Shown here: positions 28,108-63,853 of the stretch, piece by piece
Layout of the letters: every line of letters starts with the position of its first letter
How positions within the stretch are numbered: position 1 is the stretch's first letter
Source of the DNA: Curtobacterium sp. BH-2-1-1
GTDB taxonomy: Bacteria; Actinomycetota; Actinomycetes; Actinomycetales; Microbacteriaceae
Assembly: GCF_001806325.1 (NCBI RefSeq)
Contig: NZ_CP017580.1
Span: forward strand, 3,100,001-3,164,000
DNA: 64,000 nucleotides
Reading direction: 5' to 3'
Notes under the pieces: generated by a model
What the model was told of the DNA's origin: nothing
The model's database searches: none
What the model saw: only the letters and a program-made list of their open reading frames with translations
Translations under genes and position numbers: made by a program

Positions 28108-33208
<5,101 letters not shown>

Positions 33209-33342
33209 TACAACTATTTCCCACACTTCGGTGTGGGGCTCGCGTCCACTTTGTGGTTCCCGACAGACGATCGGGAACAAGAAACTGAACACCGCGCATG
33301 CGCGGAACAGCTTTCGAATTTCCAAGCGATTGGGTCGAAGGT

Positions 33343-33461
33343 GTTCCGGTGGTCATAGCGAGAGGGAAACGCCCGGTCACATTCCGAACCCGGAAGCTAA
33401 GCCTCTCAGCGCCGATGGTACTGCAAGGGGGACCTTGTGGGAGAGTAGGACGCCGCCGGAC
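33343..33461 (+). rRNA. rrf: 5S ribosomal RNA
   Basis: The sequence from GTTCCGGTGGTCATAGCG to GACGCCGCCGGAC has the actinobacterial 5S pattern: loop A, CGCCCGGTCACATTCCGAAC and CGCCGATGGTACTGC. The 5' GTTCCGGTGG and 3' CCGCCGGAC ends pair to form helix I. It lies about 135 nt after 23S. Ends are approximate by one or two bases. Confidence 0.93.
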
Positions 33462-51680: not shown

Positions 51681-52517
51681 TCACGCGTCCTTGCGATTCC
51701 ACCGGAACGTCAGCAGGCAGGCCACCGTGCCCAGGACCAGCCACGCTGTCAGGACGAGGGCTCCGAGGCCGAGGTGCCACGCGCCTCCTGGCTCGGCGGA
51801 CGCGAACGCGTCGGGCAGGAAGACCGACCGCATGCCGGACGCCATCCACCGCAGGGGGAAGACGGACGCGACGTTCTGCAGCCAGTCGGGGAGCTGCGTG
51901 AAGGGGAGGTAGACGCCGGAGATGAACTGGAGGACCAGGACGATGGGGACGATCGTGGCGGTGGCGCGGCGGCCCTCGCGGGGGAGCGCCGAGATCGCGA
52001 TGCCGAGGACGCAGCTCGTCGCGACCCCGAGGAGCATGATGCCCGCGAAGTGCGCCCACGCGCCGCCGTCGGTGGGCAGGTCCACGCCGAAGACGAGGCT
52101 CGCGATCGCCAGCAGCAGGGCGGTCTGCACGACCGTCGTGACGAGGACCATGCCGATCTTGCCGATGAAGTAGCTCACCACCGGCAGGGGTGTGCCGCCC
52201 AGACGCTTCAGCGTGCCGTCGCTGCGTTCGCCCGCGATGTCGACGCCGAGGGACTGCGTGCCGGACAGCAGGAAGCCCGTCGCGACCAGGCCGGGCAGGT
52301 AGTACGTGGCGTAGTCGACGCTGACGTTCGGGCCCGCCTGGATGTCCGGCGCGCTGCTGAACGCGACCGAGAAGAGCGCCAGCATGACGATGGGGAAGAG
52401 GAAGGTGAAGAAGACGGCGTCGGGGGCTCGGAAGTACGAGCGGAGTTCGTAGCCGATGCGGTGCGCGCCGATCGTGGCGGCGTTCGCGGTGGTCGTGTTC
52501 GTCGTCGCGGTGCTCAT
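51681..52517 (-). CDS. ABC-2 type exporter permease
   Basis: This 278-aa permease has six hydrophobic helices and an ABC-2 membrane fold. Features include YFRAPDAVFFTFLFPIVML near the start, LKRLGGTPLPVVSYFIGK (the conserved amphipathic motif) and LQFISGVYLPFTQLPDWLQ. It forms the membrane part of an export pump with the ATPase encoded immediately upstream (4-nt overlap). Pumps of this DrrAB-like type often move antibiotics or lipids; the substrate is unknown. Confidence 0.88.
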   Translation of the reverse strand: MSTATTNTTTANAATIGAHRIGYELRSYFRAPDAVFFTFLFPIVMLALFSVAFSSAPDIQAGPNVSVDYATYYLPGLVATGFLLSGTQSLGVDIAGERSDGTLKRLGGTPLPVVSYFIGKIGMVLVTTVVQTALLLAIASLVFGVDLPTDGGAWAHFAGIMLLGVATSCVLGIAISALPREGRRATATIVPIVLVLQFISGVYLPFTQLPDWLQNVASVFPLRWMASGMRSVFLPDAFASAEPGGAWHLGLGALVLTAWLVLGTVACLLTFRWNRKDA

Positions 52518-53353
52518 CGGTGGCCGACCATTCCGAGGTAGACGTCCTCGAGGGACGGGCGGATGACTTCGAGGTCGTGCATGGGTTCCGGGGTGCTCCG
52601 GATCAGGGCGGTCGGTTCGTTCGTGCGCCGTTCGTGGGGTTCGCCGACGTCGTCACGCCACCTGACGCGTGGGGTGCGGGCCTCGGCACCGCCGATCTCG
52701 TCGATCGGGGCGATGTCGAGCAGCCGGCCGTCGGCGATGACCGCTGCCCGGTCGGCGAGGTGTGCGGCCTCGTCGAGGTAGTGCGTGGTGAGGAGGATCG
52801 TCGTGCCCTCGCGCTTGACCTCGTCGATGAGCTCCCAGAAGCGGCGCCGGGCCTCCGGGTCGAAGCCGGTCGTGGGCTCGTCGAGGAAGAGGACCTCGGG
52901 GTGGCCGATGATGCCGAGGGCGACGTCGACGCGGCGCCGTTGGCCGCCGCTCAGTCTGCTGATGCGGGTGTTGCGCTGCGGCTCGAGCCCGGTCCTCTCG
53001 AGGAGCTCCTCGACGCTGCGGTGCCGCGGGTACAAGGTCGTGAAGTGCCGGAGCTGTTCCGCGACGGTGACGTTGGGGGACTCGGCGCTGGTCTGCAGGA
53101 CGATGCCGATGCGTGCGTTGTGGCTGCGGCTCGTGCGGGCGGGGTCGTGGCCGAGCACCCGGACGTCACCGTCGGTGCGGGTGCGGTAGCCCTCGAGGAT
53201 CTCGACCGTCGTGGTCTTGCCGGCGCCGTTCGGGCCGAGGAGCGCGAAGGTCTCGCCGCGGAGGATGTCGAAGGAGACGTCGTCCACGGCGCGTTTGCCG
53301 GTGGCGTACTGCTTCGTGAGGTGGTGGACCTCGATGGCGGGGGTGTCGGGCAT
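52514..53353 (-). CDS. ABC-2 type exporter ATP-binding protein
   Basis: This 279-aa ATPase has Walker A GPNGAGKTT, Q-loop IVLQTSAESPNVTV, signature LSGGQRRRVDVALGI and Walker B VLFLDEPTTGFDPE, with H-loop LLTTHYLDEAAHLADR. The C-terminal part is longer than the catalytic core and ends RPSLEDVYLGMVGHR, as in DrrA-like proteins. The ATG at 53353 is chosen because the ABC domain starts at once after it (EVHHLTKQYATGKRAVDDVS, in part). It is the first gene of a four-gene operon with a two-component system, a pattern seen for drug or stress-inducible exporters. Confidence 0.9.
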   Translation of the reverse strand: MPDTPAIEVHHLTKQYATGKRAVDDVSFDILRGETFALLGPNGAGKTTTVEILEGYRTRTDGDVRVLGHDPARTSRSHNARIGIVLQTSAESPNVTVAEQLRHFTTLYPRHRSVEELLERTGLEPQRNTRISRLSGGQRRRVDVALGIIGHPEVLFLDEPTTGFDPEARRRFWELIDEVKREGTTILLTTHYLDEAAHLADRAAVIADGRLLDIAPIDEIGGAEARTPRVRWRDDVGEPHERRTNEPTALIRSTPEPMHDLEVIRPSLEDVYLGMVGHR

Positions 53354-53407
53354 GGGTCCAGCCTGGCCGGTCGTGCACGGTGGTGGCTCGGCCGGGTGGC
53401 TCGACCC

Positions 53408-53429
53408 GCATCCTCCGATCGGGGGATGC
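53408..53429. promoter_or_regulatory. 22-bp palindrome upstream of the ABC/two-component operon
   Basis: GCATCCTCCGA (53408-53418) and TCGGGGGATGC (53419-53429) form a gapless inverted repeat with one mismatched (G-T) position. It lies 55 bp upstream of the ATPase ATG and is a good candidate site for the NarL-type regulator of the same operon. Confidence 0.5.
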
Positions 53430-53467
53430 CGGTGCACCGCCGATGGGCACCGATCTGTGCACAGTGA

Positions 53468-53496
53468 TTCGTCCGAGATGCCGATACTGATATGTT
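53468..53496 (+). promoter_or_regulatory. promoter of the WXG-type cluster
   Basis: TTCGTC (53468-53473), a 17-nt spacer and TATGTT (53491-53496) form a plausible promoter, with the first ATG of the cluster at 53543 preceded by GGGGGAGA. Confidence 0.35.
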
Positions 53497-53542
53497 GCCG
53501 GTGGGATCGCGACGGAGGGCGTTGCGACGGACGGGGGAGACG

Positions 53543-53821
53543 ATGGCTGATCTGCGGGTCTCGTACGCAACGCTCGACGGCGTGCACGACGCGCTGGACG
53601 CAGCGCAGGAGTTGTTCGCCAACGCCTCGGTGCCCACCGACGCCGGAGCGTTCGGCGCGGACGAGGTCGCCGACGCCTTCACGGTGTTCCGTACATCGCA
53701 GGAGCGCTCGACCGGGTGGCTGGCGGACACGAGCCGAACGCTCGCGCAGTACGCGCACGACACGAAGTCGCTCGTGCAGGACGCCGACGCCGAGCTCGCG
53801 GGCAAGGTCGGCGGCAAGTGA
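53543..53821 (+). CDS. small EspC/WXG-like protein, 92 aa
   Basis: This 92-aa all-helical protein resembles type VII secretion (ESX) small partners of the EspC kind: two predicted helices separated near SVPTDAGAFG, with FGADEVADAFTVFRTSQ in the position of the conserved FG and W-x-G region. No literal WXG motif is present. The ATG at 53543 is preferred over the start at 53492 because the upstream residues are basic and non-helical, and GGGGGAGA lies before it. It overlaps the next gene by 1 nt. No ESX secretion machinery is encoded in this window. Family assignment is by pattern and moderate. Confidence 0.65.
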   Translation: MADLRVSYATLDGVHDALDAAQELFANASVPTDAGAFGADEVADAFTVFRTSQERSTGWLADTSRTLAQYAHDTKSLVQDADAELAGKVGGK

Positions 53822-55578
53822 TGACCGCCGACCCGTTCGCCGGCGACCCCGGTGCCGTCGCGAAGCTGTCGAGTGGTCTCGCCGGTCACCAGGACGACCT
53901 CAGCGCCGGAGCCCACAGCGTCGCCCGCGCCGCGGAGGATGCGGACGACTGGAGGGGCACCTCGAAGGATCGCTTCTCCGTCACCGTCGGCACCGTCCCG
54001 CGCGCGGCTCGACGCATCATCGGCCGGCTCGACGCGGCTATCGACGTACTCGACACCTACGCCGACGACGTGCGGGCTATCCAGGACGAGGCGGAGCGGA
54101 TCCGTGCGGCACAGTTGACGAACGCCATGGAAGTCGCTGCGAACACCGTGTCGCTCTCGGCCGCGGTGGGGGCCGCCGCGGGGAAGGACGCCACGGAGGC
54201 TGACGGACGACAGGCCCGACGGCTGCGGTCCGACGCGGACGACCTCGCGGCGACGGCTTCGCGGCTGCAGGCGGAATGGGACGCGCTCGTCGAACGACGG
54301 GCCGCCGCGGACCGTGCTGCGTCGGCCGGGCTGTCCGACACCGAGGTGCTCGGCTGGGCACCGTCGTACTCGGGGACGCTCGGCAGGATGAGCGACGCCG
54401 ACTTCCTCGCTGCCGTCGCCGCGATGCCGCCCGAGGTCCTGGCGGCGCAGGATCGGTCAGTCGGTGATCGGCTCGCCGGGCTGCCGCCCGAGACGGTGCA
54501 GGCGTGGTGGGACGGTCTCGGTGGCCGGGGATCCGGCGGGGTGCACTCGGCGGCGCAGGACGCGCTCATCACGGCGTTGCCGGCGGTGATCGGGAACCTG
54601 GACGGCGTGCCGTACTGGGCGCGGGACCAGGCGAACCGGTTGAGCGCGCAGCGGGCGTCCGCGCGGGCGCAGGACGACGTGGACGCGGCGCGGAAGGCGC
54701 TGCACGCCGCGGGACCGAGCGCCCGGCGTGCGGCGCAGCAGGAGCTCGACGACGCCGCGGAGCGGCTCGCAGCTCTGGACAACTTCATCGCTGCATCGCG
54801 GACGACCCTCCGCGACGTGGACGGCATGGCTCGGCAATTCGTCTCGTTCATCGACGGGCAGCCTCCCCTCGGAGCGGTGTCGATCGGCGACCTCGACACG
54901 GCAGTCAACGTCAGCTACCTCGTGCCCGGAATGGGCACCACCCTCGAGGACACGACCGTTCTGATGAAGGCGGGTTCCAACGTGATCGCAACGCAGCAGC
55001 TCTCCGAGGGGGGACGAGACACCGCGATGGTCACGTGGATCGGGTACGACGCGCCGCGCAACGCGCTGACGACAGGCGATCTCGGCGTGTTCGGATTGGC
55101 TGACGCGGCGGCAGGGGCAGACCGTCTCGCCGCGGATCTCGGTGGATTCCGAGCGACCCGGCCGGACGCGAAGCTCAACGTTGTCGCGCACTCGTACGGA
55201 TCGACGACGGCATCGATCACCCTGCACGAGCATGCCGATCTCGGCGTGGGCAGCTTCGTGACACTGGGCTCCGCGGGCATCCCCGGGCACATCCCGAACG
55301 CCGGAGCGATCCACGCCGAGCGCATGTACGCGGCGCAGGCCGAAGAACGGTTCAACGTGGCGCACATCGGACAGGTCCTGAGCTACCCCGAGCGCATCGA
55401 CCCGACCTTCAAACCGTTCGGCGCGACCGAGATCGACGCGTCGCACGTCAACGGATCCTCCGCGGTCAACGTGCACGACCTGTACGTGAACCCGAACGGC
55501 GCCGACGACGCAGATCACGGCTACCTCGACCTCGACACCAACACGTTGATCGAGACGGCGAAGGCGACGCTACGGTGA
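53821..55578 (+). CDS. WXG-domain alpha/beta-hydrolase (DUF1023 type)
   Basis: This 585-aa protein combines an N-terminal helical domain with a WXG-like motif (DDWRGTSKDRF, Trp44), a long coiled-coil middle (about 90-330, Ala/Arg/Asp-rich) and a C-terminal alpha/beta-hydrolase domain of the DUF1023 type from about residue 370. The nucleophile elbow is VVAHSYGSTT with Ser458; an acid and the His in DDADHGYLD are plausible partners. No signal peptide is present, as expected for a type VII substrate. It overlaps the 92-aa gene and the next lipoprotein gene. Such proteins are common in actinobacteria but their substrates are largely unknown; secreted lipase or toxin roles are guesses. Confidence 0.8.
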   Translation: MTADPFAGDPGAVAKLSSGLAGHQDDLSAGAHSVARAAEDADDWRGTSKDRFSVTVGTVPRAARRIIGRLDAAIDVLDTYADDVRAIQDEAERIRAAQLTNAMEVAANTVSLSAAVGAAAGKDATEADGRQARRLRSDADDLAATASRLQAEWDALVERRAAADRAASAGLSDTEVLGWAPSYSGTLGRMSDADFLAAVAAMPPEVLAAQDRSVGDRLAGLPPETVQAWWDGLGGRGSGGVHSAAQDALITALPAVIGNLDGVPYWARDQANRLSAQRASARAQDDVDAARKALHAAGPSARRAAQQELDDAAERLAALDNFIAASRTTLRDVDGMARQFVSFIDGQPPLGAVSIGDLDTAVNVSYLVPGMGTTLEDTTVLMKAGSNVIATQQLSEGGRDTAMVTWIGYDAPRNALTTGDLGVFGLADAAAGADRLAADLGGFRATRPDAKLNVVAHSYGSTTASITLHEHADLGVGSFVTLGSAGIPGHIPNAGAIHAERMYAAQAEERFNVAHIGQVLSYPERIDPTFKPFGATEIDASHVNGSSAVNVHDLYVNPNGADDADHGYLDLDTNTLIETAKATLR

Positions 55579-56075
55579 ATCCGATGACGACGCGCGCGCA
55601 CACGACCATCGCAGTCGCCATCCTGGCCGCTGCTGCCAGCCTCGCGCTCTCCGGGTGCGGGACGACGAGAGCGGGACAGCCCATGACGATCGACGAGGCA
55701 CAGGCGGAGGCAATCGCGGAATTCCGATCCGCGCTCGCGTTGGCTCCGGACACGTGGCCGCAAGAGGTGCCGAAGCCGGCCGTCTTCGACTGCCGGATCG
55801 ATGGGGTGCGAGCCGTGCAGTTCAGCTACTTCGTCGCGGTCGAAGCGCCGGCCGCTCCTGGCGTGCTCGTCGCGCAAGCCGGCGAACATTGGGAGCGCGA
55901 GGGCTACGAGTTGTCGAAGACACAGACGGAGATGGACCCGGAGACCGGTCAGGTCTACGCCGTGGTGGCGCGAGCCGACGGCAAGCCCCGTGCTTCGATG
56001 GCAGCCACCAAGGTCCGCGCGCACGTCAACGTGGACTCGCGCTGCGTCCTCGGCGACCCGGACGACTACCGGTGA
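55575..56075 (+). CDS. putative lipoprotein, 166 aa
   Basis: The N-terminus MNPMTTRAHTTIAVAIL continues to LALSGC, a lipobox with Cys28, so the protein should be anchored outside the membrane. The mature part (about 138 residues) is not recognised; it contains two further cysteines (FDCRIDG and SRCVLGD) that could pair. The GTG at 55575 overlaps the hydrolase stop; the ATG at 55584 is an alternative that keeps the signal. Its overlap with the WXG-hydrolase gene suggests a partner or immunity role, which is inference only. Confidence 0.72.
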   Translation: MNPMTTRAHTTIAVAILAAAASLALSGCGTTRAGQPMTIDEAQAEAIAEFRSALALAPDTWPQEVPKPAVFDCRIDGVRAVQFSYFVAVEAPAAPGVLVAQAGEHWEREGYELSKTQTEMDPETGQVYAVVARADGKPRASMAATKVRAHVNVDSRCVLGDPDDYR

Positions 56076-56884
56076 CGGCCGGGGAACCCGAGTCCACCGC
56101 CGGGGAGAGCGCGACGGCTGACGACCTGCGGCTCCGGCGCAACCGGCTGATCTTCGGGATCGTCGTCGCGCCGATCGGAGTCCTGATCGCACTCTTCCTG
56201 TCGTTCGTGGTGCAGATCAGCTACGCGTGGCGATCGACGAGCGACGGCGGGGCCGCGGCCGGACCGCAGATCGTGGCGATCGTGATCGGCCTGCTCGCCA
56301 CAGTCCCAGCGCTCATCGCCGGGATCCGAGCGCTCCGTGATCGAGTGCTCGAGGTGGCGGCATCGGGAGCGACGGTGGTCGCGGGCCTCGGGTTCGTCGC
56401 AGTCGTGCTGCTCGTCGTCGTGCCGGCGTTCGACGTCCTGCCGCGAGCCGCGCGTGAGGCGGACGCGTACCAGGAACAGCAGCGGCTGGACGAGCTCGAC
56501 GACGTCGACTCCGGATTCGGGCCCGGATCGGCCGAGGAGGCGGGCCAGGAGATGCAGGAGTACGTCGACGATGCGCTGCGGCTGCTCGAAGTGGCGCCGA
56601 GCGCGGTACGGACGAGCACCTGGTCCACGAGCGGCACGACCGCCGCGGGCAACACCTGTCGGGCCTTCCACGAGCGCATCCGGCTCGGGGACGAGGTCGA
56701 CCGTTCGAGCACGGCGGAGACCCTGCGGACGGCGTGGAAGGCCGAGGGCGACCAGACCGGGTTCGATGAGCGGAACGGCCGCCTCGAGCTCAGTGTCTCC
56801 TCCGCCGACGCCACGATCTCGTGGCTCAAGGCCGACAACGTGCTGCTGGTGGAGAGCGACTGCATTCCGTCCGGGGCGCCCTGA
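56072..56884 (+). CDS. membrane protein, 270 aa, unknown function
   Basis: This protein has three hydrophobic helices in the first 130 residues (LIFGIVVAPIGVLIALFLS, QIVAIVIGLLATVPALIAG and VVAGLGFVAVVLLVVVPAF), then a 140-residue C-terminal domain that is probably outside the cell. That domain has two cysteines (GNTCRAF, ESDCIPS) and repeats the size and cysteine pattern of the preceding lipoprotein. The GTG at 56072 overlaps that gene's stop. It is the last of four overlapping genes. Not a recognised family. Confidence 0.7.
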   Translation: MTAGEPESTAGESATADDLRLRRNRLIFGIVVAPIGVLIALFLSFVVQISYAWRSTSDGGAAAGPQIVAIVIGLLATVPALIAGIRALRDRVLEVAASGATVVAGLGFVAVVLLVVVPAFDVLPRAAREADAYQEQQRLDELDDVDSGFGPGSAEEAGQEMQEYVDDALRLLEVAPSAVRTSTWSTSGTTAAGNTCRAFHERIRLGDEVDRSSTAETLRTAWKAEGDQTGFDERNGRLELSVSSADATISWLKADNVLLVESDCIPSGAP

Positions 56885-56901
56885 CGGGCAGCGATGTGCC
56901 C

Positions 56902-57675
56902 TCAGCGCAGGCGCGTGGACGCGATCCCACCGTCGACGTCGAGCGTCCCGCCGTTCACGAACGCCGCCTCGTCCGACACCACCCACCGGACGGCGCGGGC
57001 GATGTCGACCGGCTGCACCGGCACCCCCGCGGGCGTCCCCTGCGTCATCGCCGCGAGCACGTCCGCCGAGTCTGCGTTCCCCGGCGTGGCCGTCGCACCC
57101 GGCGCCACCGTCACGACCCGCACTCCGCGCTGCCCGTACTCGGCCGCCCACGCCCGGGTCAGCTGCTCGACCGCGGCCTTCGTCGCCGGGTAGAGGCCCA
57201 TGTACGGCACCCCGACCCGGGCCATCCACGAGCCGATGTTCACGACGACGCCGGACCCGCGCGCGGCCATCCCCGGGGCGAGCGAAGCCACGAGGACGTG
57301 CGGTGCGCGGACGTTCGTCGTGAGCAGCGCGTCGACGGTGTCGTCGGACAGGGACTCCGTCGGACCGCCGGGGTAGACGCCGGCGTTGTTCACGAGGACG
57401 TCGACGTGACCGCCGAGCAGCTCCCGGGCCGAGGCGGCGAACGCCCGGACGTCGGGAGCACCCGCGGAGAGGTCCGCCACGATCGGGAGGGCTCGGCCAC
57501 CCCGGCGCTCGATGTCGTCGGCGACAGCACGCGTGCGGACGGCGTCGCGGCCGTGCACGGCGACGGTCATGCCGGCGGCCGCGAGCTCACGGGCGACTGC
57601 CTCACCGATGCCGCTCGAGGCGCCGGTCACGAGGGCAGTGCGGACGGTGGTCTGGTCAAGGAGTGCAGTGGTCAT
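56902..57675 (-). CDS. short-chain dehydrogenase/reductase
   Basis: This 257-aa NAD(P)-dependent SDR has the cofactor motif VTGASSGIGEAVA, NNAGV, and the catalytic Tyr-x-x-x-Lys in LYPATKAA, with INGG-type C-terminal VNGGTLDVDGG. Arg37 in HGRDAV hints at NADP(H) preference. The ATG at 57675 starts right at the Rossmann fold; the longer open frame upstream antisenses the AraC gene. It is transcribed divergently from the AraC regulator with paired direct repeats between, so the regulator likely controls it. The substrate is unknown. Confidence 0.9.
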   Translation of the reverse strand: MTTALLDQTTVRTALVTGASSGIGEAVARELAAAGMTVAVHGRDAVRTRAVADDIERRGGRALPIVADLSAGAPDVRAFAASARELLGGHVDVLVNNAGVYPGGPTESLSDDTVDALLTTNVRAPHVLVASLAPGMAARGSGVVVNIGSWMARVGVPYMGLYPATKAAVEQLTRAWAAEYGQRGVRVVTVAPGATATPGNADSADVLAAMTQGTPAGVPVQPVDIARAVRWVVSDEAAFVNGGTLDVDGGIASTRLR

Positions 57676-57706
57676 GCATCGATGCTCGATCCCCGCGCAG
57701 CCCCGC

Positions 57707-57787
57707 ACCTTGCCGGATCCAGCGGGAACCTTGCCGGATCCCGCACGAGTTCCTCGACGCCGGGGACACGACTTCCTCGACGCCGGG
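57707..57787. repeat. two pairs of direct repeats between SDR and AraC genes
   Basis: ACCTTGCCGGATCC occurs at 57707-57720 and 57728-57741 (21 bp apart, two helical turns). TTCCTCGACGCCGGG occurs at 57750-57764 and 57773-57787 (23 bp apart). Paired direct repeats at such spacing are the usual form of AraC-family operators. Confidence 0.55.
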
Positions 57788-57796
57788 AGAACTGCG

Positions 57797-57802
57797 TAGC
57801 GT
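57797..57802 (+). promoter_or_regulatory. -10 box (TAGCGT) of leaderless AraC-gene transcript
   Basis: TAGCGT lies 6 nt before the GTG at 57809, directly after the second repeat pair, so the regulator may control its own promoter. Confidence 0.45.
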
Positions 57803-57808
57803 GGGCAC

Positions 57809-58765
57809 GTGGATGATCGCACGGCGCAGCACCTCGACCGCGCGGTGGAAGTGGCCTCGCGGCACGCCGCCGTGCTCGACCGGGCGTCCACCGTCGACAC
57901 CGTCGCCCGTCCCGCCTCGGTGCAGCGGGCCGAAGCACTGGGCCTGACCGTCTCCCGCGTCCACGAGCCGACCGGACTCTTCGACCGGCGGTACGTGCCG
58001 TCGTTGTCCGTCGTCCTCCGCGGCCGGAAGCGCTCGATCGTCGGGGACGACGACCAGGTCTGGGGTCGCGAGCGGTTCATCATCACGCCGGTGGACCTGC
58101 CCGTGGTCGCCGGGGTGCTCGACACGGCAGGCAGCGACGGCTTCGTCTCGGCGGTCTGGAAGCTCGACCCGGTCGTCGTCGGCGAGGTCGTGGCGTCGAT
58201 GTCGAGCACGATTTCCAGCACGAGCCGCACGGACCTGCCGCGACTCGGCACGTGGACGGCCCCGCTCGCCGATGCCGTCAGCCGCCTGCTCGCGTTGCTC
58301 GACGCCCCCGAGGACATCCCCGTCCTGTTCCCCCTCGTCTCGCGCGAGATCATCCTCCGCCTGCTGCAGACCTCGCAGGCGCCACGCATCGCCGCCGCGC
58401 TCGACCGCGCCGGAGCCGACGCCGGACTGGTCACGGCGGCGACCGCGCTCCTGACCGGGCGGATGGACGAACCGTGGACGATGGAGCGCCTCGCCCGCGT
58501 ACTCCGGGTCAGCGAGAGCACCCTCTTCGCCCGCTTCAAGCAGGCCACCGGCATGTCACCCGCGCAGTACCTCAAGCGGACCCGACTCGGGGAAGCGCGT
58601 CGCCGCATGGTCCTGCACGCCGACACCGCGACCCGCGCCGCGGCCGCCGTCGGCTACCGCAGCGCCTCCCACTTCTCGCGGGACTACCGCGAGGCGTACG
58701 GCCGGCCCCCGGCCGCCGACGCCGTGGTGGCGCGCGAACAGCTGGCGCTCGCCCCCGCCGTGTAG
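57809..58765 (+). CDS. AraC-family transcriptional regulator
   Basis: This 318-aa regulator has an N-terminal AraC_N (cupin-like) domain of about 200 residues (VSRVHEPTGLFDRRYVPSLS, in part, and LDLPVVAGVLDTA-like VDLPVVAGVLDTAG). A C-terminal double helix-turn-helix follows: MERLARVLRVSESTLFARF, then YLKRTRLGEARRRMV and YRSASHFSRDYREAYG. The length and domain type resemble regulators of the YqhC kind that control aldehyde or alcohol reductases. The GTG is chosen from the leaderless promoter. It is divergent from the SDR gene and upstream of a quinone-oxidoreductase-like gene. Confidence 0.9.
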   Translation: MDDRTAQHLDRAVEVASRHAAVLDRASTVDTVARPASVQRAEALGLTVSRVHEPTGLFDRRYVPSLSVVLRGRKRSIVGDDDQVWGRERFIITPVDLPVVAGVLDTAGSDGFVSAVWKLDPVVVGEVVASMSSTISSTSRTDLPRLGTWTAPLADAVSRLLALLDAPEDIPVLFPLVSREIILRLLQTSQAPRIAAALDRAGADAGLVTAATALLTGRMDEPWTMERLARVLRVSESTLFARFKQATGMSPAQYLKRTRLGEARRRMVLHADTATRAAAAVGYRSASHFSRDYREAYGRPPAADAVVAREQLALAPAV

Positions 58766-58778
58766 CCGGCCCAGTGCC

Positions 58779-58820
58779 GGATTGGAGGCGCGGGTCGGCG
58801 GTGATTCGCGCCTCCAGTCC
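58779..58820 (+). terminator. hairpin terminator (GGAGGCGCGG family)
   Basis: GGATTGGAGGCGCG (58779-58792) pairs with CGCGCCTCCAGTCC (58807-58820) with one G-U pair; loop 14 nt. It follows the AraC stop by 13 nt. Confidence 0.65.
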
Positions 58821-58897
58821 GACGGATGGTGCGTCCCGACCACCGCCACCGGCTCGCTCGCTGGGTACGGCTGAGCGACGTCCGGTAGACCGGAACG

Positions 58898-59830
58898 GTG
58901 AAGGTCGTAGGAGTCGAACAGTTCGGAGGGCCGGAGGCCCTTGCCGTCCACGAGGTGCCGGAGCCGCACGCCGGTGCGGGGTCCGTGCGGATCCGGGTGC
59001 AGGCGTTCGCCGTGAACCCGACCGACACCGGTGTGCGCGCCGGCCAGCGGGACAGCTCGCAGGCCTCGGCGCCGTACGTGCCGGGGATGGACGCCGCCGG
59101 GGTCATCGACGAGGTCGGGCCCGACGTCTCCGGGTGGGAGGTCGGCGACGAGGTCATGGCGATCGCGCTGCCGCTCAGCGCCCACGGGGGTGCGTACGTC
59201 GAGGAGCTCGTCGCGCCGGTCGGGTCGTTCACGCGGATCCCTCGGGGGACGTCGCTTCCGCTCGCGTCCACCGTGCCGATGAACGGGCTGACGGCGTTGC
59301 AGATCCTCTCGCGAGCGGGACTCGTTCCCGGGCAGACGCTCGCCGTGACCGGGGCTGCGGGGTTGCTCGGGAACTACGTCGTGCAGCTCGGGGTCGCTGC
59401 TGGCCTCACCGTCATCGCGGATGCTGCTCCTGCGGACGAAGCGCTGGTCCGGTCGCTCGGGCCGTCGCACATCGTGGCGCGTGGGGATGGGTTCGCTGCT
59501 GCGGTGCGTGCGCTCGTGCCGGACGGGGTCGATGCGCTCGCCGATGCTGCGGTGCAGCGGACCTCGGTGGTCGATGCCGTGCGCGACGGGGGAGTGTTCC
59601 TTGACGTGCGGGGGTGGGAGGGCAACGGGGCTCGCGGGATCCGGTTCGAGCAGATCGCCGTGTTCGCGGAGTACCGGTCGTTCGAAAAGCTCGATCAGCT
59701 GCGGCATGCGGTGGAGAGTGGGACGGTGACGCCGCGGGTTGCGGAGGTGGTGCCGGCGTCGCGGGCGGCGGAGGCGCACTCGCGGCTGGAAGCGGGTGGG
59801 ACGCGGGGGCGGTTCGTGTTGACGTGGTGA
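58898..59830 (+). CDS. zinc-free quinone oxidoreductase/alcohol dehydrogenase-like protein
   Basis: This 310-aa medium-chain dehydrogenase/reductase starts with the catalytic domain (VEQFGGPEALAVHEVPEP, and FAVNPTDTGVRAGQ). MDAAGVIDEVG and VGDEVMAI follow, and the NADPH-binding motif is VTGAAGLLGNYVVQL. The cysteine/histidine zinc ligands of true alcohol dehydrogenases are absent, so it fits the quinone oxidoreductase branch. The GTG start lies 6 nt after TAGACC (58886-58891), a weaker leaderless -10. A terminator separates it from the AraC gene. Confidence 0.88.
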   Translation: MKVVGVEQFGGPEALAVHEVPEPHAGAGSVRIRVQAFAVNPTDTGVRAGQRDSSQASAPYVPGMDAAGVIDEVGPDVSGWEVGDEVMAIALPLSAHGGAYVEELVAPVGSFTRIPRGTSLPLASTVPMNGLTALQILSRAGLVPGQTLAVTGAAGLLGNYVVQLGVAAGLTVIADAAPADEALVRSLGPSHIVARGDGFAAAVRALVPDGVDALADAAVQRTSVVDAVRDGGVFLDVRGWEGNGARGIRFEQIAVFAEYRSFEKLDQLRHAVESGTVTPRVAEVVPASRAAEAHSRLEAGGTRGRFVLTW

Positions 59831-59843
59831 CGAGTCGCGGAGG

Positions 59844-59872
59844 TTGCATTGTTGATATCCAGGATTTCAGAT
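59844..59872 (+). promoter_or_regulatory. candidate bacteriocin promoter
   Basis: TTGCAT (59844-59849), 17 nt and TCAGAT (59867-59872) lie in a locally AT-richer intergenic stretch. The prebacteriocin ATG at 59939 is preceded by AAGGAG (59924-59929). Confidence 0.4.
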
Positions 59873-59938
59873 TCGCGCCGACTTCTGTTTCACTCCTGAC
59901 GACCGCCTGATCACGGGCGAACGAAGGAGAACAGATCA

Positions 59939-60301
59939 ATGAACAAGCACGTGTTGCGCCTCGCCACCGCATTCGCAACGGTCGCGGTGCTCCCCGCACT
60001 GACCATGACGGGACTCGCCCACGCGTCCGTTGACGGTAGCGCCGCGACGAGCGGGAGCGCGACCGCGGACGAGGTAACGGTGCGCGGCGCGACCGAGGTC
60101 GTCGGTGGGGGCACGTGGTCGTACGGGGTGGACAGCACCGATGTGTTCTCCGCGTACGACAACCGCAAGGTGACGCACAGCACCGCGGTGCGGTCGTGGG
60201 GCTCGACCGTCAGCTCAGGAAAGGTCGCCAAGGGGAAGATCGCCTGGGCAAGCAAGGGCAAGGCGCCGTTCGGGAACACCTCGTACTGGAACATCCACTG
60301 A
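59939..60301 (+). CDS. lactococcin 972 family bacteriocin precursor
   Basis: This 120-aa protein is a predicted secreted bacteriocin. A Sec signal peptide (NKHVLRLATAFATVAVLPAL, then a cleavage-like AHA-SVDG near residue 29) is followed by a short Ser/Thr/Ala spacer and the family core. The core has GGGTWSYGVDS, SAYDNRKVTHSTAV and a C-terminus NTSYWNIH, matching the order of GTW-YGV, SNY, K-HSATV and YYNFW in lactococcin 972. The order of genes that follows (large membrane protein, ATPase) is that of known lactococcin 972 operons. Lactococcin 972 blocks septum formation by binding lipid II; the target here is not shown. The gene is flanked by a quinone-oxidoreductase-like gene upstream. Confidence 0.88.
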   Translation: MNKHVLRLATAFATVAVLPALTMTGLAHASVDGSAATSGSATADEVTVRGATEVVGGGTWSYGVDSTDVFSAYDNRKVTHSTAVRSWGSTVSSGKVAKGKIAWASKGKAPFGNTSYWNIH

Positions 60302-62202
60302 TCCGGAGTTTCGCGACCGTCACGGTGCTTGCCGTGACGGTCGCCGTCCTCCTAGCGACCGGTCTGGCCGTTTTCGCGGTCGGGCACGCCGAGGCCCTCG
60401 GACTCACCAGCGGCCGGACGACCATCGATCTGATCGACGTTCCGTTCGGGCCGACGAAGGCGGAGCACGTGAACGAGCTCCGCGACGTTGCCCGCTCGCA
60501 CAACGTCGACTTCGCGCTCGTGACACCGGCGCGCAACGGGGCGCCGGCGGAGTTCGACGCCTACGTGTTGTCCGGAGGCGTCGCACCGTCGACCTTCTGG
60601 ACACGAACGGCGCAGCACTCGAGCGCCGAGGTCGGGGACGCGGTGATCCTCTGGACCTACGCGATCGACGGCACACCGAGTGACATCGTCGCGTTCTTGC
60701 AGTCCCTGCGAGCGGCAGGATTCGAGTACTCGGTCGTCGCGCTCGAGCCGGTGACCGTCCTCGCATCGACGGTTCTGCGCCCCGGTATCGCCGCAGTCAC
60801 ACTCGCGACGATCGCCGGTCTGCTCATCGCACTCGTCGCCGAGTCGCGCCGACGGCTGCCACGCAACCGCGCGCGATCGATCGTCGGCTGGTCGCGGCGC
60901 CGGATCGCATCGCGTGAGGCGCTCGACGGCGTCGTCCTCGTCGTCGCGTGTGCCGTGCCGGTCGTGGGCGGCCTCTTGGCCTTCGTCGCGATCCGTGGTG
61001 CGTCCCCGGCGCTCATCGCCTTGCTCGTTCCGGTGACGGCGGCGCTCATCATCAGCCTTGCAGCCTTCGTGGTCGTCGTCAGCGCAGGCTCGACGGTGCT
61101 TCCCGAGCGCTTCGGAACGCTGATCGCCAGGGGCACCGCGCACACCGCGATCGTCTCGACGGCCGGCGTGCTGCTCGTCGTCCTTCTGACTTCGACCAGC
61201 CACACGCTCTTCGATCAGGTCCAGACGACCCGTGTCCTCGATGTTTCGCTCGCCGCGGAGGCGACTGCAGGTGACGACGTCACGCTCGGCGTCGGCTTCG
61301 CGAGCGAGGAGCAGGACCTTGCGCTCGGAACGATCGGCGCTGGGGCGCTGGAGCACGGCACGGCGCGGATGTCCATGACGAACTTCGCGCCGGACTCGCT
61401 CCTGATCGCCGGTGCTCCCACGGATCCGTTGCTGGACGGCGGCACGTCGCCGGCACGCGACGGCGTGACCGTCCTCGTGCCCGAACGTCTCGCGAGTGAT
61501 CGGGCGCGGATCCGAGCGACGGTCGCTGAAGCGTTCGCCGACGGCTGGGAGGTCGACGACACCGAGCCGACCCGTGCAACGCCGATCGACGTCGAGATCG
61601 TCGCCAGCACCGCACCGCTCGTGCAGTCGGCGGATCGGTGGGTCACGTGGCTCGCGCCGCGGAACGACGGCTCCGACGACGTCCCCGTGATCGTCCTGCA
61701 CACCCTCTCCGATCTGGCGCCCAACCGCTTCGGCACGGCCGTGCACAACGGCGAGGTCCGGTTCGCCGATCGGGACGCGCTGGTGAGTGACCTCCGCGAA
61801 ACGTCGGCCATCGACGTGGTCACGCAGATCAACCGCGTCGGAGCGACCATCGAACGGGAACGTGCCACCGTGCAGATCGACACGATGATCGCGATCGGTG
61901 CCGCATGTGCGGGAGGGGCCTCGATCCTGTTCGCCGCCGTCCAACTCGTCGGAGACCACCGCCGGCGAACCGCTCCAGTGCTGCGGCTGCGAAGCCTGGT
62001 AGGACGTCGATCGGCTGCGACGCACGTCCCGTTCGTGGCCGTCTGCGCACTGGTCTCCGCCTGCGCTGCTTCGGTGACCTCCGCGAAGGAGAACGGGCTT
62101 CTCGCCGCTGGCCTCGACGCACTGACAGCCGGCCTCGGAGTGGTCGGCGTCCTCACCGTGGTCCTCGGGGTGACCACCCATCGAGATCGGATCGGCAGAT
62201 GA
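60298..62202 (+). CDS. bacteriocin-associated integral membrane (immunity/transport) protein
   Basis: This 634-aa protein matches the large membrane protein of lactococcin 972 operons (often annotated as DUF1430 or putative immunity). One N-terminal helix is followed by an extracellular-looking domain (about 30-160), a cluster of helices (about 165-310), a second soluble domain (about 315-530), then three helices at the end. This is a FtsX/MacB-like permease layout. No ATG occurs near the expected N-terminus: the frame begins with CTG at 60298, which overlaps the bacteriocin TGA (CTGA), and the next options are GTG at 60325 and 60334. CTG initiation by coupling is my preferred but unproven choice. 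The end overlaps the ATPase gene by 4 nt. Confidence 0.82.
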   Translation: MIRSFATVTVLAVTVAVLLATGLAVFAVGHAEALGLTSGRTTIDLIDVPFGPTKAEHVNELRDVARSHNVDFALVTPARNGAPAEFDAYVLSGGVAPSTFWTRTAQHSSAEVGDAVILWTYAIDGTPSDIVAFLQSLRAAGFEYSVVALEPVTVLASTVLRPGIAAVTLATIAGLLIALVAESRRRLPRNRARSIVGWSRRRIASREALDGVVLVVACAVPVVGGLLAFVAIRGASPALIALLVPVTAALIISLAAFVVVVSAGSTVLPERFGTLIARGTAHTAIVSTAGVLLVVLLTSTSHTLFDQVQTTRVLDVSLAAEATAGDDVTLGVGFASEEQDLALGTIGAGALEHGTARMSMTNFAPDSLLIAGAPTDPLLDGGTSPARDGVTVLVPERLASDRARIRATVAEAFADGWEVDDTEPTRATPIDVEIVASTAPLVQSADRWVTWLAPRNDGSDDVPVIVLHTLSDLAPNRFGTAVHNGEVRFADRDALVSDLRETSAIDVVTQINRVGATIERERATVQIDTMIAIGAACAGGASILFAAVQLVGDHRRRTAPVLRLRSLVGRRSAATHVPFVAVCALVSACAASVTSAKENGLLAAGLDALTAGLGVVGVLTVVLGVTTHRDRIGR

Positions 62203-62849
62203 CTCCTGAACCGTATGTCCGCGTCGCGGAGCTCGAGTACGGCCTCGGACCGCGAACGCTGTGGGGCGGAGTCGCGTTTGACGTCGGACCTGGCTGTTCC
62301 CTCGCGCTGCGCGGCGCCTCGGGCTCGGGGAAGAGCACCCTCCTCCACTGTCTCGCCGGTATCGACCGGGGGTACAGCGGATCCGCCGTCGTCCTGGGAA
62401 TGTCGCTCGCAGACGCATCGGAGCGGGTGCGACGGCGTCTTCGTCGGAGTGACGTCGGTTGCGTCGTGCAGGACCACGCCGTGGTGCCCGAATGGACGGT
62501 CGAGGCGAACCTGCGCGTGCTCCAGCTGCCGGGCGTCGGGCGGGCCGAGCTCGACGCGCGGATCGGCCACGCGTTGCTGGCCGTCGGGCTCGGGGACCGA
62601 CGGAGAGCAAGGGCGGGACTGCTCAGTGGTGGTGAGCAGCAGCGGGTCGCGGTGGCTCGTGTGCTCGTGCAGCGGCCGCGGGTGGTGTTGGCGGACGAGC
62701 CGACGGCGTCGCTGGATCGGGAGAGCGCGGCGCGGGTGCGGGCGGGGCTCGACGTGCTTCGGGCCTCGGGGAGTGCGGTGGTGGTGGCGACGCATGATGC
62801 GGAGCTCGTGGAGTGGGCGGGCGATGCAATCGAGTTGGACCCGCGGTGA
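62199..62849 (+). CDS. ABC transporter ATP-binding protein of bacteriocin operon
   Basis: This 216-aa ATPase resembles LolD/MacB-type domains: Walker A GASGSGKST with Lys45, Q-loop CVVQDHAVVPEWTV, signature LLSGGEQQRVAVARVL, Walker B VVLADEPTASLD and H-loop VATHDAELVE. It is shorter than most exporters' ATPases but complete. It should energise the membrane protein encoded just upstream, either exporting the bacteriocin or protecting the producer. It overlaps both neighbours, giving one coupled operon. Confidence 0.88.
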   Translation: MTPEPYVRVAELEYGLGPRTLWGGVAFDVGPGCSLALRGASGSGKSTLLHCLAGIDRGYSGSAVVLGMSLADASERVRRRLRRSDVGCVVQDHAVVPEWTVEANLRVLQLPGVGRAELDARIGHALLAVGLGDRRRARAGLLSGGEQQRVAVARVLVQRPRVVLADEPTASLDRESAARVRAGLDVLRASGSAVVVATHDAELVEWAGDAIELDPR

Positions 62850-63343
62850 CGTTCCGGAGTCCGGCTCCGCGCAGCATCGTGTTCTCCGTGCTCTCCTTCT
62901 GCGCACCGATCGTCGTCGCGGCGACGGCGGGAGCCGCCGTGACGGGCTTCGACGGCACCTCGATCGTCGTGCTCGTGCTGCTGGTCGGCGGCGTGGGAGT
63001 CGCCATCTGCGGAGCGAGGCGGACCGCGGCGTTCGTCTCCGTCAGCGAGCACGACGTGACTCTCGGGCTCGCGCCGTTCTGGTGGACTCGACTCCCGCTC
63101 CGCGCGGTGCGTGGGGTGACGCTGGTGAACGTCGACGCGTGCGCGGCGTGGGCGGGTATCGGCATCAAGGGGCGCCAGCGTACTCGGCCCGGACGGCTCT
63201 ACTCCGTGGGCGGTGCGCACGGCGTGGCGATCATCATGGACGACGGGCGACGCGTCACGGTGGCATTTCCTCGGCGTGAGACCGCTCTGCGTGTGGTCGA
63301 GGCCATCGATGCCATGAGGAGCGCCGTCCGGTTGCAGTCGTGA
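62846..63343 (+). CDS. small membrane protein of bacteriocin operon, 165 aa
   Basis: This protein has two hydrophobic helices (SIVFSVLSFCAPIVVAATA and SIVVLVLLVGGVGVAICGA) followed by a soluble C-terminal domain of about 95 residues. That domain is beta-rich and ends in a predicted helix (RRETALRVVEAIDAM), resembling a bacterial PH-like domain. The GTG at 62846 overlaps the ATPase stop, so it is the fourth gene of the bacteriocin operon. It is not part of the classic three-gene lactococcin 972 set as I know it, so it could be an accessory immunity factor; that is a guess. Confidence 0.65.
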   Translation: MTFRSPAPRSIVFSVLSFCAPIVVAATAGAAVTGFDGTSIVVLVLLVGGVGVAICGARRTAAFVSVSEHDVTLGLAPFWWTRLPLRAVRGVTLVNVDACAAWAGIGIKGRQRTRPGRLYSVGGAHGVAIIMDDGRRVTVAFPRRETALRVVEAIDAMRSAVRLQS

Positions 63344-63403: not shown

Positions 63404-63853
63404 TTGCTCGCCGCGTCGGCGGCTGTGGTCGACGAACTCCTCCGACGCGGAATCGTTCGGACATGGAACTCGCCGCTCGGCGACCTCGACGGATGGATCG
63501 CATTCCGCGCGTCCGGAGGCGGGCTCGCGTCCAACTCCGAGAAGGGCTACGACCTCTCGTGGAACGATGGCGAGCGCGTTCAGGTCAAGGGCCGCCTCGT
63601 CGACCGCGCTGATCGACGCCTACAACCGTTCTCGGCGTTCCGGTCGTGGGCCTTCGACATCGCGGTGTTCGTGCTTTCCTGTGTGCGGACCTACGACATC
63701 ATCTGGGCACGGGAGCGCATTCACTTCGAGCCGGAGCAGTTCGCGAGGCGCGTCGAGCACGCCAACCCTCGGCAGTGCTCGTCCGACGCATCGCGTCCGA
63801 GGGCCGGGACGTGTCGCATGCTGGCGTTGGACAGCCCGGACGAGCCTGGCTGA
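63404..63853 (+). pseudogene. PD-(D/E)XK-like hypothetical protein, start missing and likely frameshifted
   Basis: The frame resembles small actinobacterial proteins with a restriction-endonuclease-like core: VVDELLRRGIVRTWNSPLGD, NSEKGYDLSWNDGERVQVKGR (in part) with D-x(n)-QVK, and SAFRSWAFDIAVFVL. Homologous-looking sequence begins around 63374, before the only possible start (TTG at 63404, without a ribosome site). Near 63768 the likely coding frame shifts by one base: in the other frame the sequence continues AVLVRRIASEGRDVS, whereas the annotated frame gives an implausible Cys/Ser/Arg-rich tail. So the gene appears broken at both ends, or the protein starts at a non-standard codon. It lies directly after the bacteriocin operon. 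Confidence 0.5.

What the first reader, a model, noticed from the sequence alone, without database searches (positions are those of the whole stretch)
59939..63343. Four-gene lactococcin 972-type bacteriocin operon with an extra membrane protein
The prebacteriocin carries the GTW-YGV/SAY/K-x-THS/YW-N pattern and is followed by the family's large membrane protein and an ATPase, all joined by stop-start overlaps (CTGA, ATGA, GTGA). A fourth coupled gene (165 aa, two helices plus a PH-like domain) is not part of the classic set. The family and gene order are established knowledge; the role of the fourth gene is inference.
Basis: partly seen in the sequence, partly recalled or inferred. Interest (0 to 1): 0.8.

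Follow-up and report, generated by a model that had tools for sequence, protein, structure and literature searches.

The report
Bacteriocin operon with candidate immunity gene
The window holds a real lactococcin 972-type bacteriocin operon, and its odd fourth gene belongs to an unnamed family of small membrane proteins that also accompanies a quite different secreted bacterial toxin (the SDP type) where that toxin's known immunity gene is missing, which suggests that it protects the producer.

Summary
Four overlapping genes lie at 59939-63343: a PF09683 prebacteriocin, a 634-aa membrane protein with a CTG start, an ABC ATPase, and a 165-aa protein without a Pfam or NCBIfam family. The first three are the ordinary, though divergent, lactococcin 972 set.

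The fourth gene is the finding. It is modelled as a PH-like domain with a two-helix membrane hairpin. Strong relatives occur in 11 of 66 genomes of the genus (Curtobacterium): 4 directly behind this operon type, 4 directly behind an SdpCAB (SDP toxin) operon, 3 alone. Of 26 SDP operons in the genus, 11 have a gene of the wider family behind SdpB (one after a second SdpC); the other 15 have SdpI or DUF1648 genes; none has both or neither. SdpI is the known SDP immunity protein (recalled).

I therefore read it as an accessory self-immunity protein whose family serves two unrelated secreted toxins. Against this: only 4 of 17 related operons carry it, several family members stand alone or beside rpoB, and nothing was tested at the bench. 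Paper and large protein searches failed, so novelty in print is untested.

The parts
59939..60301 (+). prebacteriocin, 120 aa, lactococcin 972 family (PF09683), hydrophobic N-terminal leader
   Evidence: PF09683 30 bits vs cut-off 22; hydrophobic stretch residues 5-23; 14 relatives ahead of the same membrane protein
60298..62202 (+). large membrane protein, 634 aa, CTG start overlapping the bacteriocin stop
   Evidence: 9 hydrophobic windows; profile match to membrane proteins of other lactococcin 972 loci, 99.8% probability; start position shared with 14 relatives
62199..62849 (+). ABC-transporter ATPase, 216 aa
   Evidence: PF00005 98 bits; TIGR03608 139 bits, below its cut-off 254.85; motifs present
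62846..63343 (+). fourth gene: 165-aa protein, membrane hairpin plus PH-like domain; candidate accessory immunity protein
   Evidence: no family above cut-off; model and fold; relatives behind lactococcin 972 and SDP operons
58898..59830 (+). quinone oxidoreductase-like gene (QOR), flank of the variable island; probably not part of the system
   Evidence: PF08240/PF13602; found at 79-95% identity in 17 of 21 related island loci
51681..53350 (-). ABC-2 type exporter genes, other flank of the variable island; probably not part of the system
   Evidence: tblastn 86-89% identity to the genes beside the island in G310; same flank in relatives; the name is by eye

Best explanation
A lactococcin 972-type bacteriocin operon. 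The small protein is secreted through its N-terminal leader; the large membrane protein and the ABC ATPase form the operon's usual transporter-like pair (export or self-protection, by analogy). The fourth gene encodes an accessory self-immunity protein: a membrane hairpin inserted into a PH-like domain, made by translational coupling with the toxin operon, which sits in the producer's own membrane and blocks or tolerates the secreted toxin there. Its family serves two unrelated toxins: it also accompanies SDP (SdpC/A/B) operons, exactly those in the genus that have no SdpI or DUF1648 gene, and it is sometimes left alone in genomes without the toxin. Shown: gene set, overlaps, predicted fold, positions in relatives, mutual exclusion with SdpI/DUF1648. 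Inferred: membrane location, co-transcription, immunity, the molecular mechanism, and that the bacteriocin is active.
For: Strong relatives in 11 of 66 genus genomes (E 1.9e-20 or better): 4 directly behind the lactococcin 972 ATPase, 4 directly behind SdpB, 3 alone. Overlap or near-contact is kept whichever toxin lies upstream (offsets -3, -3, -3, +5 behind the ATPase; -13 in the four hotspot SDP operons). All 26 SDP operons of the genus: PH-type without SdpI/DUF1648 in 11, SdpI or DUF1648 without PH-type in 15, both 0, neither 0, within the loci fetched. The 15 pass Pfam cut-offs for PF13630 or PF07853: 7 behind SdpB, 7 ahead of SdpC (2 of them divergent), 1 on the opposite strand at the end of SdpB. 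In 7 of the 11 PH-type operons neither island flank is in the fetched locus, so linkage is not only shared location. Beyond the genus, of 19 SDP loci read with short flanks, PH-type genes adjoin 3 (G056 Mycetocola, G263, and G437 of another family, there ahead of SdpC), SdpI/DUF1648 9, neither 7, both 0. Alone at the same site: G339 has SDP genes + PH-type + PAP2, G300 only PH-type + PAP2. A far relative (G328) is predicted to fold the same way. On the tree, lactococcin-linked and SDP-linked copies interleave, 3 changes at least.
Against: 13 of 17 related lactococcin 972 operons lack it behind the ATPase, as do 20 of 20 other PF09683 loci fetched, so it is not required for this toxin type. In G334 the island holds both toxin operons and the gene is with SDP, not with lactococcin 972. 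5 of the 15 best family members in the genus stand alone. Weaker members look like housekeeping genes: 7 of 7 inspected in the genus lie beside rpoB, and 7 inspected outside the genus had no SDP or lactococcin gene nearby. The copy in G311 is cut short by a stop. Interleaving of the two toxin labels rests on moderate support (85/64 for the G311-G306 pair). One family protecting against toxins that act differently (lipid II binding versus loss of membrane potential, both recalled) is unusual. The 26 operons are related, so they are not 26 independent events. No function was tested.
Confidence: 0.65

Rival explanations
1. The fourth gene is a resident of the variable island (or a general envelope-stress protein) and the toxin operons merely inserted next to it.
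For: All 11 strong copies in the genus lie in one island flanked by an ABC-2 exporter and/or QOR; 3 of 11 are alone there; weaker relatives sit beside rpoB in 7 of 7 cases inspected.
Against: In 7 SDP operons PH-type genes follow SdpB away from the island flanks, they adjoin SDP genes in other genera and another family, overlaps are kept, and PH-type and SdpI/DUF1648 exclude each other in 26 of 26 operons.
Confidence: 0.15
2. The fourth gene helps secretion or maturation of the toxin, for instance as a membrane adaptor of the export machinery.
For: It overlaps or adjoins an ABC pair here and SdpA/SdpB elsewhere; PH-like domains often serve as protein adaptors (recalled); the best Foldseek match, EROS, is a membrane-protein partner (its role recalled).
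Against: The two toxin systems share no recognised export part, most operons of both types do without it, it persists alone without a toxin, and it alternates with SdpI rather than with SdpA or SdpB.
Confidence: 0.11
3. The locus is an ordinary lactococcin 972 operon and the fourth gene has no role in it (passenger left from an SDP operon or other event).
For: Absent from 13 of 17 related operons; truncated in G311; in the SDP setting its link is much stronger.
Against: Frame, predicted fold and motif conservation over 13 sequences, and overlap or near-contact with the ATPase in 4 of 4 lactococcin-linked copies.
Confidence: 0.09

Closest known systems
Lactococcin 972 family bacteriocins (PF09683) with associated membrane protein (TIGR01654) and ABC ATPase (TIGR03608)
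   Same: Family match of the small protein, gene order, ABC ATPase with TIGR03608 among its three best NCBIfam hits, membrane protein related by profile to other lactococcin 972 membrane proteins
   Different: Bacteriocin and ATPase are below NCBIfam cut-offs and the membrane protein has no NCBIfam match; a fourth overlapping gene is added
SDP system (SdpA/B/C with SdpI/YfhL immunity, PF13630)
   Same: The fourth-gene family accompanies the 11 of 26 genus SDP operons that have no SdpI or DUF1648 gene
   Different: No Pfam match to SdpI; predicted PH-like fold with one hairpin; in the window it follows a lactococcin 972 operon
Bacterial PH-domain membrane proteins such as Bacillus YdbS/YdbT, reported to give resistance to some bacteriocins (recalled, no call)
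   Same: Small membrane protein with PH-like domain, protective role proposed
   Different: No Pfam PH model matched the window protein or any of 14 members; genomic setting differs
EROS/CYBC1 (PDB 8kei chain D)
   Same: Best Foldseek hit (E 1.4e-3) and a 134-residue alignment, the longest of the rows shown; a PH-like domain with membrane helices (recalled)

Membership tests
Lactococcin 972 bacteriocin | match to PF09683 above gathering score | tested here: met
   30 bits vs 22; 31.6 bits by genome search
Lactococcin 972 bacteriocin | match to NCBIfam subfamily TIGR01653 above cut-off | tested here: not met
   23.2 bits vs 32.1; so I file it under PF09683, not under this subfamily
Lactococcin 972 bacteriocin | N-terminal secretion leader | tested here: inconclusive
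   hydrophobic stretch at residues 5-23; no signal-peptide predictor available
Lactococcin 972 bacteriocin | growth inhibition of related bacteria | not testable with these tools
   needs bench work
Lactococcin 972 operon | associated membrane protein, TIGR01654 | tested here: not met
   no NCBIfam match; related by profile comparison to membrane proteins of other lactococcin 972 loci, 99.8%, one of four of which matches TIGR01654 weakly (24.4 bits vs 189.35)
Lactococcin 972 operon | ABC ATPase, TIGR03608 | tested here: not met
   139.1 bits vs 254.85; third best NCBIfam hit. PF00005 is met
SdpI/YfhL immunity proteins | match to PF13630 | tested here: not met
   no match of the window protein or of 14 family members
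SdpI/YfhL immunity proteins | position beside a toxin operon | tested here: met
   window gene overlaps the last operon gene; its family replaces SdpI/DUF1648 in 11 of 26 SDP operons. It is like SdpI by position only
SdpI/YfhL immunity proteins | protection against the cognate toxin | not testable with these tools
   bench
Bacterial PH-domain families of Pfam | match to a Pfam PH model | tested here: not met
   window protein; 14 members; the only match at E 0.05 was DUF7268, one member, E 0.026
PH-like fold | predicted PH-like barrel with C-terminal helix | tested here: met

The most novel reading that the evidence does not exclude
A previously unnamed family of small PH-hairpin membrane proteins is a portable immunity class, exchanged between two mechanistically unrelated secreted toxins (SDP and lactococcin 972) and replacing SdpI in SDP operons of actinomycetes.
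Probability: 0.5. Interest if true: 0.7.

Novelty: new variant of a known kind. Interest (0 to 1): 0.52.

Why it matters
Self-protection in lactococcin 972-type systems is, as far as I recall, assigned only by position to the transporter pair. A small protein whose family takes the place of SdpI in SDP operons gives a direct single-gene test of immunity in both systems, and would show that one membrane-protein family can protect against secreted toxins of different kinds.

Tried and rejected
The plasmid collection has no match. A genome-contig scan with the membrane protein found no relative; a scan with the alignment found 6 loci, of which the Hymenobacter one (26%, E 7e-5) I took for chance and did not follow.

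Considered and rejected: chance ORF; pure hitch-hiking in the island; the fourth gene as an SdpI homologue by sequence.

A search of the whole fetched loci found SdpI or DUF1648 beside all 8, ahead of SdpC or on the other strand, over Pfam cut-offs. I raised the confidence from 0.60 to 0.65, the novel case from 0.45 to 0.50 and interest from 0.50 to 0.52 for this reason, and lowered the rivals slightly.

Rows dropped and limits: G337 was translated in the wrong frame and left out of the tree and of the broad profile; it was found in the right frame. G324, G337, G186 and G133 are not in the 25-row tree, and G312 was cut to 165 residues there. The broad profile was trained on several of the SDP-linked proteins, so its E-values for those are not independent. 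With the 13-row profile, 10 of the 11 genus PH-type genes score between 2.1e-82 and 1.1e-4 and G337 has no match (four of the ten are in the profile); G337 is 80% identical to the G328 protein. One marginal broad-profile hit (E 0.0012) in the G317 lactococcin locus was not counted. Of 69 places matched by the 13-row profile in the genus I inspected the 15 best and 7 of the 54 weaker. Of 45 PF09683 places outside this operon type I fetched 20. 2 of the 26 SdpA places are below the NCBIfam cut-off. SdpB and SdpC in most loci rest on home-made profiles seeded from G310.

Literature: ten paper searches and two direct look-ups all failed (55, 82). Nothing here says whether the association is in print; all statements about known immunity functions are recalled.
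Full report
WHAT IS THERE. The four genes exist as described: prebacteriocin 59939-60301, membrane protein 60298-62202, ABC ATPase 62199-62849, fourth gene 62846-63343, each overlapping the one before by four bases. The prebacteriocin passes PF09683 and falls short of NCBIfam TIGR01653. The ATPase is a normal ABC protein with TIGR03608 as its third best NCBIfam hit, below cut-off. The membrane protein matches no family alone, but an alignment of 12 such proteins matches an alignment of 8 membrane proteins from other lactococcin 972 loci of the genus at 99.8% probability over 541 columns. The genome has one PF09683 place.

THE THREE-GENE CORE IN RELATIVES. In 66 genus genomes the membrane protein has 19 matches in 18 genomes. 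I fetched 18 of the 19 places (not G313, 20 bits); G326 is a fragment without an ATPase beside it and G357 is cut by a contig end. 17 places have the ATPase next to the membrane protein, and 15 of these have a PF09683-like frame directly ahead, the window included; of the other two, G336's second copy has only a short remnant and G357 is cut off. In the genus PF09683 has 60 places in 44 of 66 genomes. Of 20 further loci fetched, 17 show bacteriocin, large membrane protein and ATPase in that order among predicted genes, so this is a common operon type here.

WHERE ITS RELATIVES SIT. The single-sequence search of 66 genus genomes gives matches in 21, of which 11 are strong (E 1.9e-20 or better). 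Four follow the lactococcin 972 ATPase (window, G355, G311, G312), four follow SdpB of an SdpC/SdpA/SdpB operon (G310, G303, G334, G306), three stand alone (G031, G304, G340). G334 also has a lactococcin 972 operon a few kilobases away, without a fourth gene of its own. SdpA passes its NCBIfam cut-off in all four; SdpB passes in G310 and was below cut-off in the piece tested from G306, and SdpC was below cut-off in both. All eleven lie in one island flanked by an ABC-2 exporter and/or QOR (window flanks). With the 13-row profile the genus has 69 places in 52 genomes. Of the best 15, ten directly follow a toxin operon (the eight above, G257 and G339) and five are alone (G304, G031, G340, G163, G300). 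Seven weaker ones inspected all sit beside the same 1162-residue gene, which is rpoB by Pfam in the one copy scanned. Outside the genus, the G151 copy and seven weaker members showed no SDP or lactococcin gene nearby.

THE SDP OPERONS. SdpA has 26 places in 21 of 66 genus genomes, 24 above the family cut-off. In 11 a PH-type gene follows SdpB (G310, G303, G334, G306, G302, G344, G328, G324, G337, G339, G257; in G324 after a second SdpC). In the other 15 there is an SdpI or DUF1648 gene, over Pfam cut-off in each: behind SdpB in 7 (G307, G328's other operon, G333, G350, G304, G334's other operon, the window's own genome), ahead of SdpC in 7 (G351, G342, G356, and two each in G321 and G322, of which one each is divergent), and on the opposite strand at the end of SdpB in G339's second operon. 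No operon has both and none has neither, in loci of 8 to 19.5 kb (the G328 locus holds two operons about 8 kb apart, one of each kind). CPBP proteins (Rce1-like) occur further downstream in five loci scanned. Outside the genus 19 further SDP loci were read with about 1.5 kb of flank: PH-type genes in 3 (G263 and Mycetocola behind SdpB; G437 of another family ahead of SdpC), SdpI/DUF1648-like genes in 9 (phmmer only), neither in 7, both in none. A second model, of the G328 protein, shows the same architecture (mean pLDDT 86.1). At one site G339 has SDP genes, the PH-type gene and a PAP2 gene, and G300 has the PH-type gene and PAP2 between the same neighbours without SDP genes.

TREE. In a 25-row tree the lactococcin-linked and SDP-linked copies need at least three changes. 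The window and G355 pair (97/99), while G311 falls among SDP-linked and lone copies (92/91 for the group, 85/64 for the pair with G306). Exchange of the neighbouring toxin is likely, but not firmly supported.

HOW IT MOST LIKELY WORKS. SdpI is the known SDP immunity protein (recalled). A family that takes its place, never occurs with it in the operons seen, moves with the toxin to several sites, persists alone where the toxin is absent, and overlaps a second toxin's operon fits self-immunity best. The main weakness is that 13 of 17 related lactococcin 972 operons, and 20 of 20 other PF09683 loci, lack it. There the transporter pair presumably suffices, so the fourth gene would be accessory. 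The binding partner of the PH-like domain (toxin, lipid or target) is unknown.

NOVELTY. The bacteriocin operon itself is a new member of a known kind; the coupling of this unnamed family to two toxin types makes it a new variant. Whether it is already in print could not be checked: every paper search failed.

Noticed in passing
L201 (G000:C1:2346000-2357000), outside the window: The window's own genome carries a separate SDP operon with two SdpC-like frames, SdpA, SdpB, a DUF1648 protein and a CPBP protein, and an SdpI-like frame nearby.
   Followed up: partly
window 60298-60300: CTG start codon of the membrane protein, shared by 7 of 15 related operons while the others use ATG (7) or GTG (1) at the same stop-overlap.
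   Followed up: yes
window 51681-63343 and relatives: A variable island beside an ABC-2 exporter and a quinone oxidoreductase gene holds lactococcin 972 operons, SDP operons or lone fourth-gene relatives in different Curtobacterium genomes.
   Followed up: partly
SDP loci L207-L213: In 7 SDP operons of the genus the SdpI gene lies ahead of SdpC rather than behind SdpB, divergent in two of them.
   Followed up: partly
window 63404-63853: ORF of 149 aa after the operon with only a weak DUF6998 match (E 0.075); by eye it resembles a 174-aa protein in the G312 island.
   Followed up: no
L122:10438-10839: The fourth-gene copy in G311 ends at an in-frame TGA after 133 residues, so it may be a decayed copy.
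   Followed up: no
L129:7334-8125: SdpC of Mycetocola reblochoni matches in two consecutive stop-separated frames, so it looks interrupted.
   Followed up: no
L089:4992-5129: A second membrane protein/ATPase pair in G336 has only a short bacteriocin-like remnant ahead of it (by eye).
   Followed up: no
window 28108-33461: 16S, 23S and 5S rRNA genes.
   Followed up: no
L307:2818-3417: In G437, of another family in the order, a PH-type gene lies directly ahead of SdpC instead of behind SdpB.
   Followed up: partly
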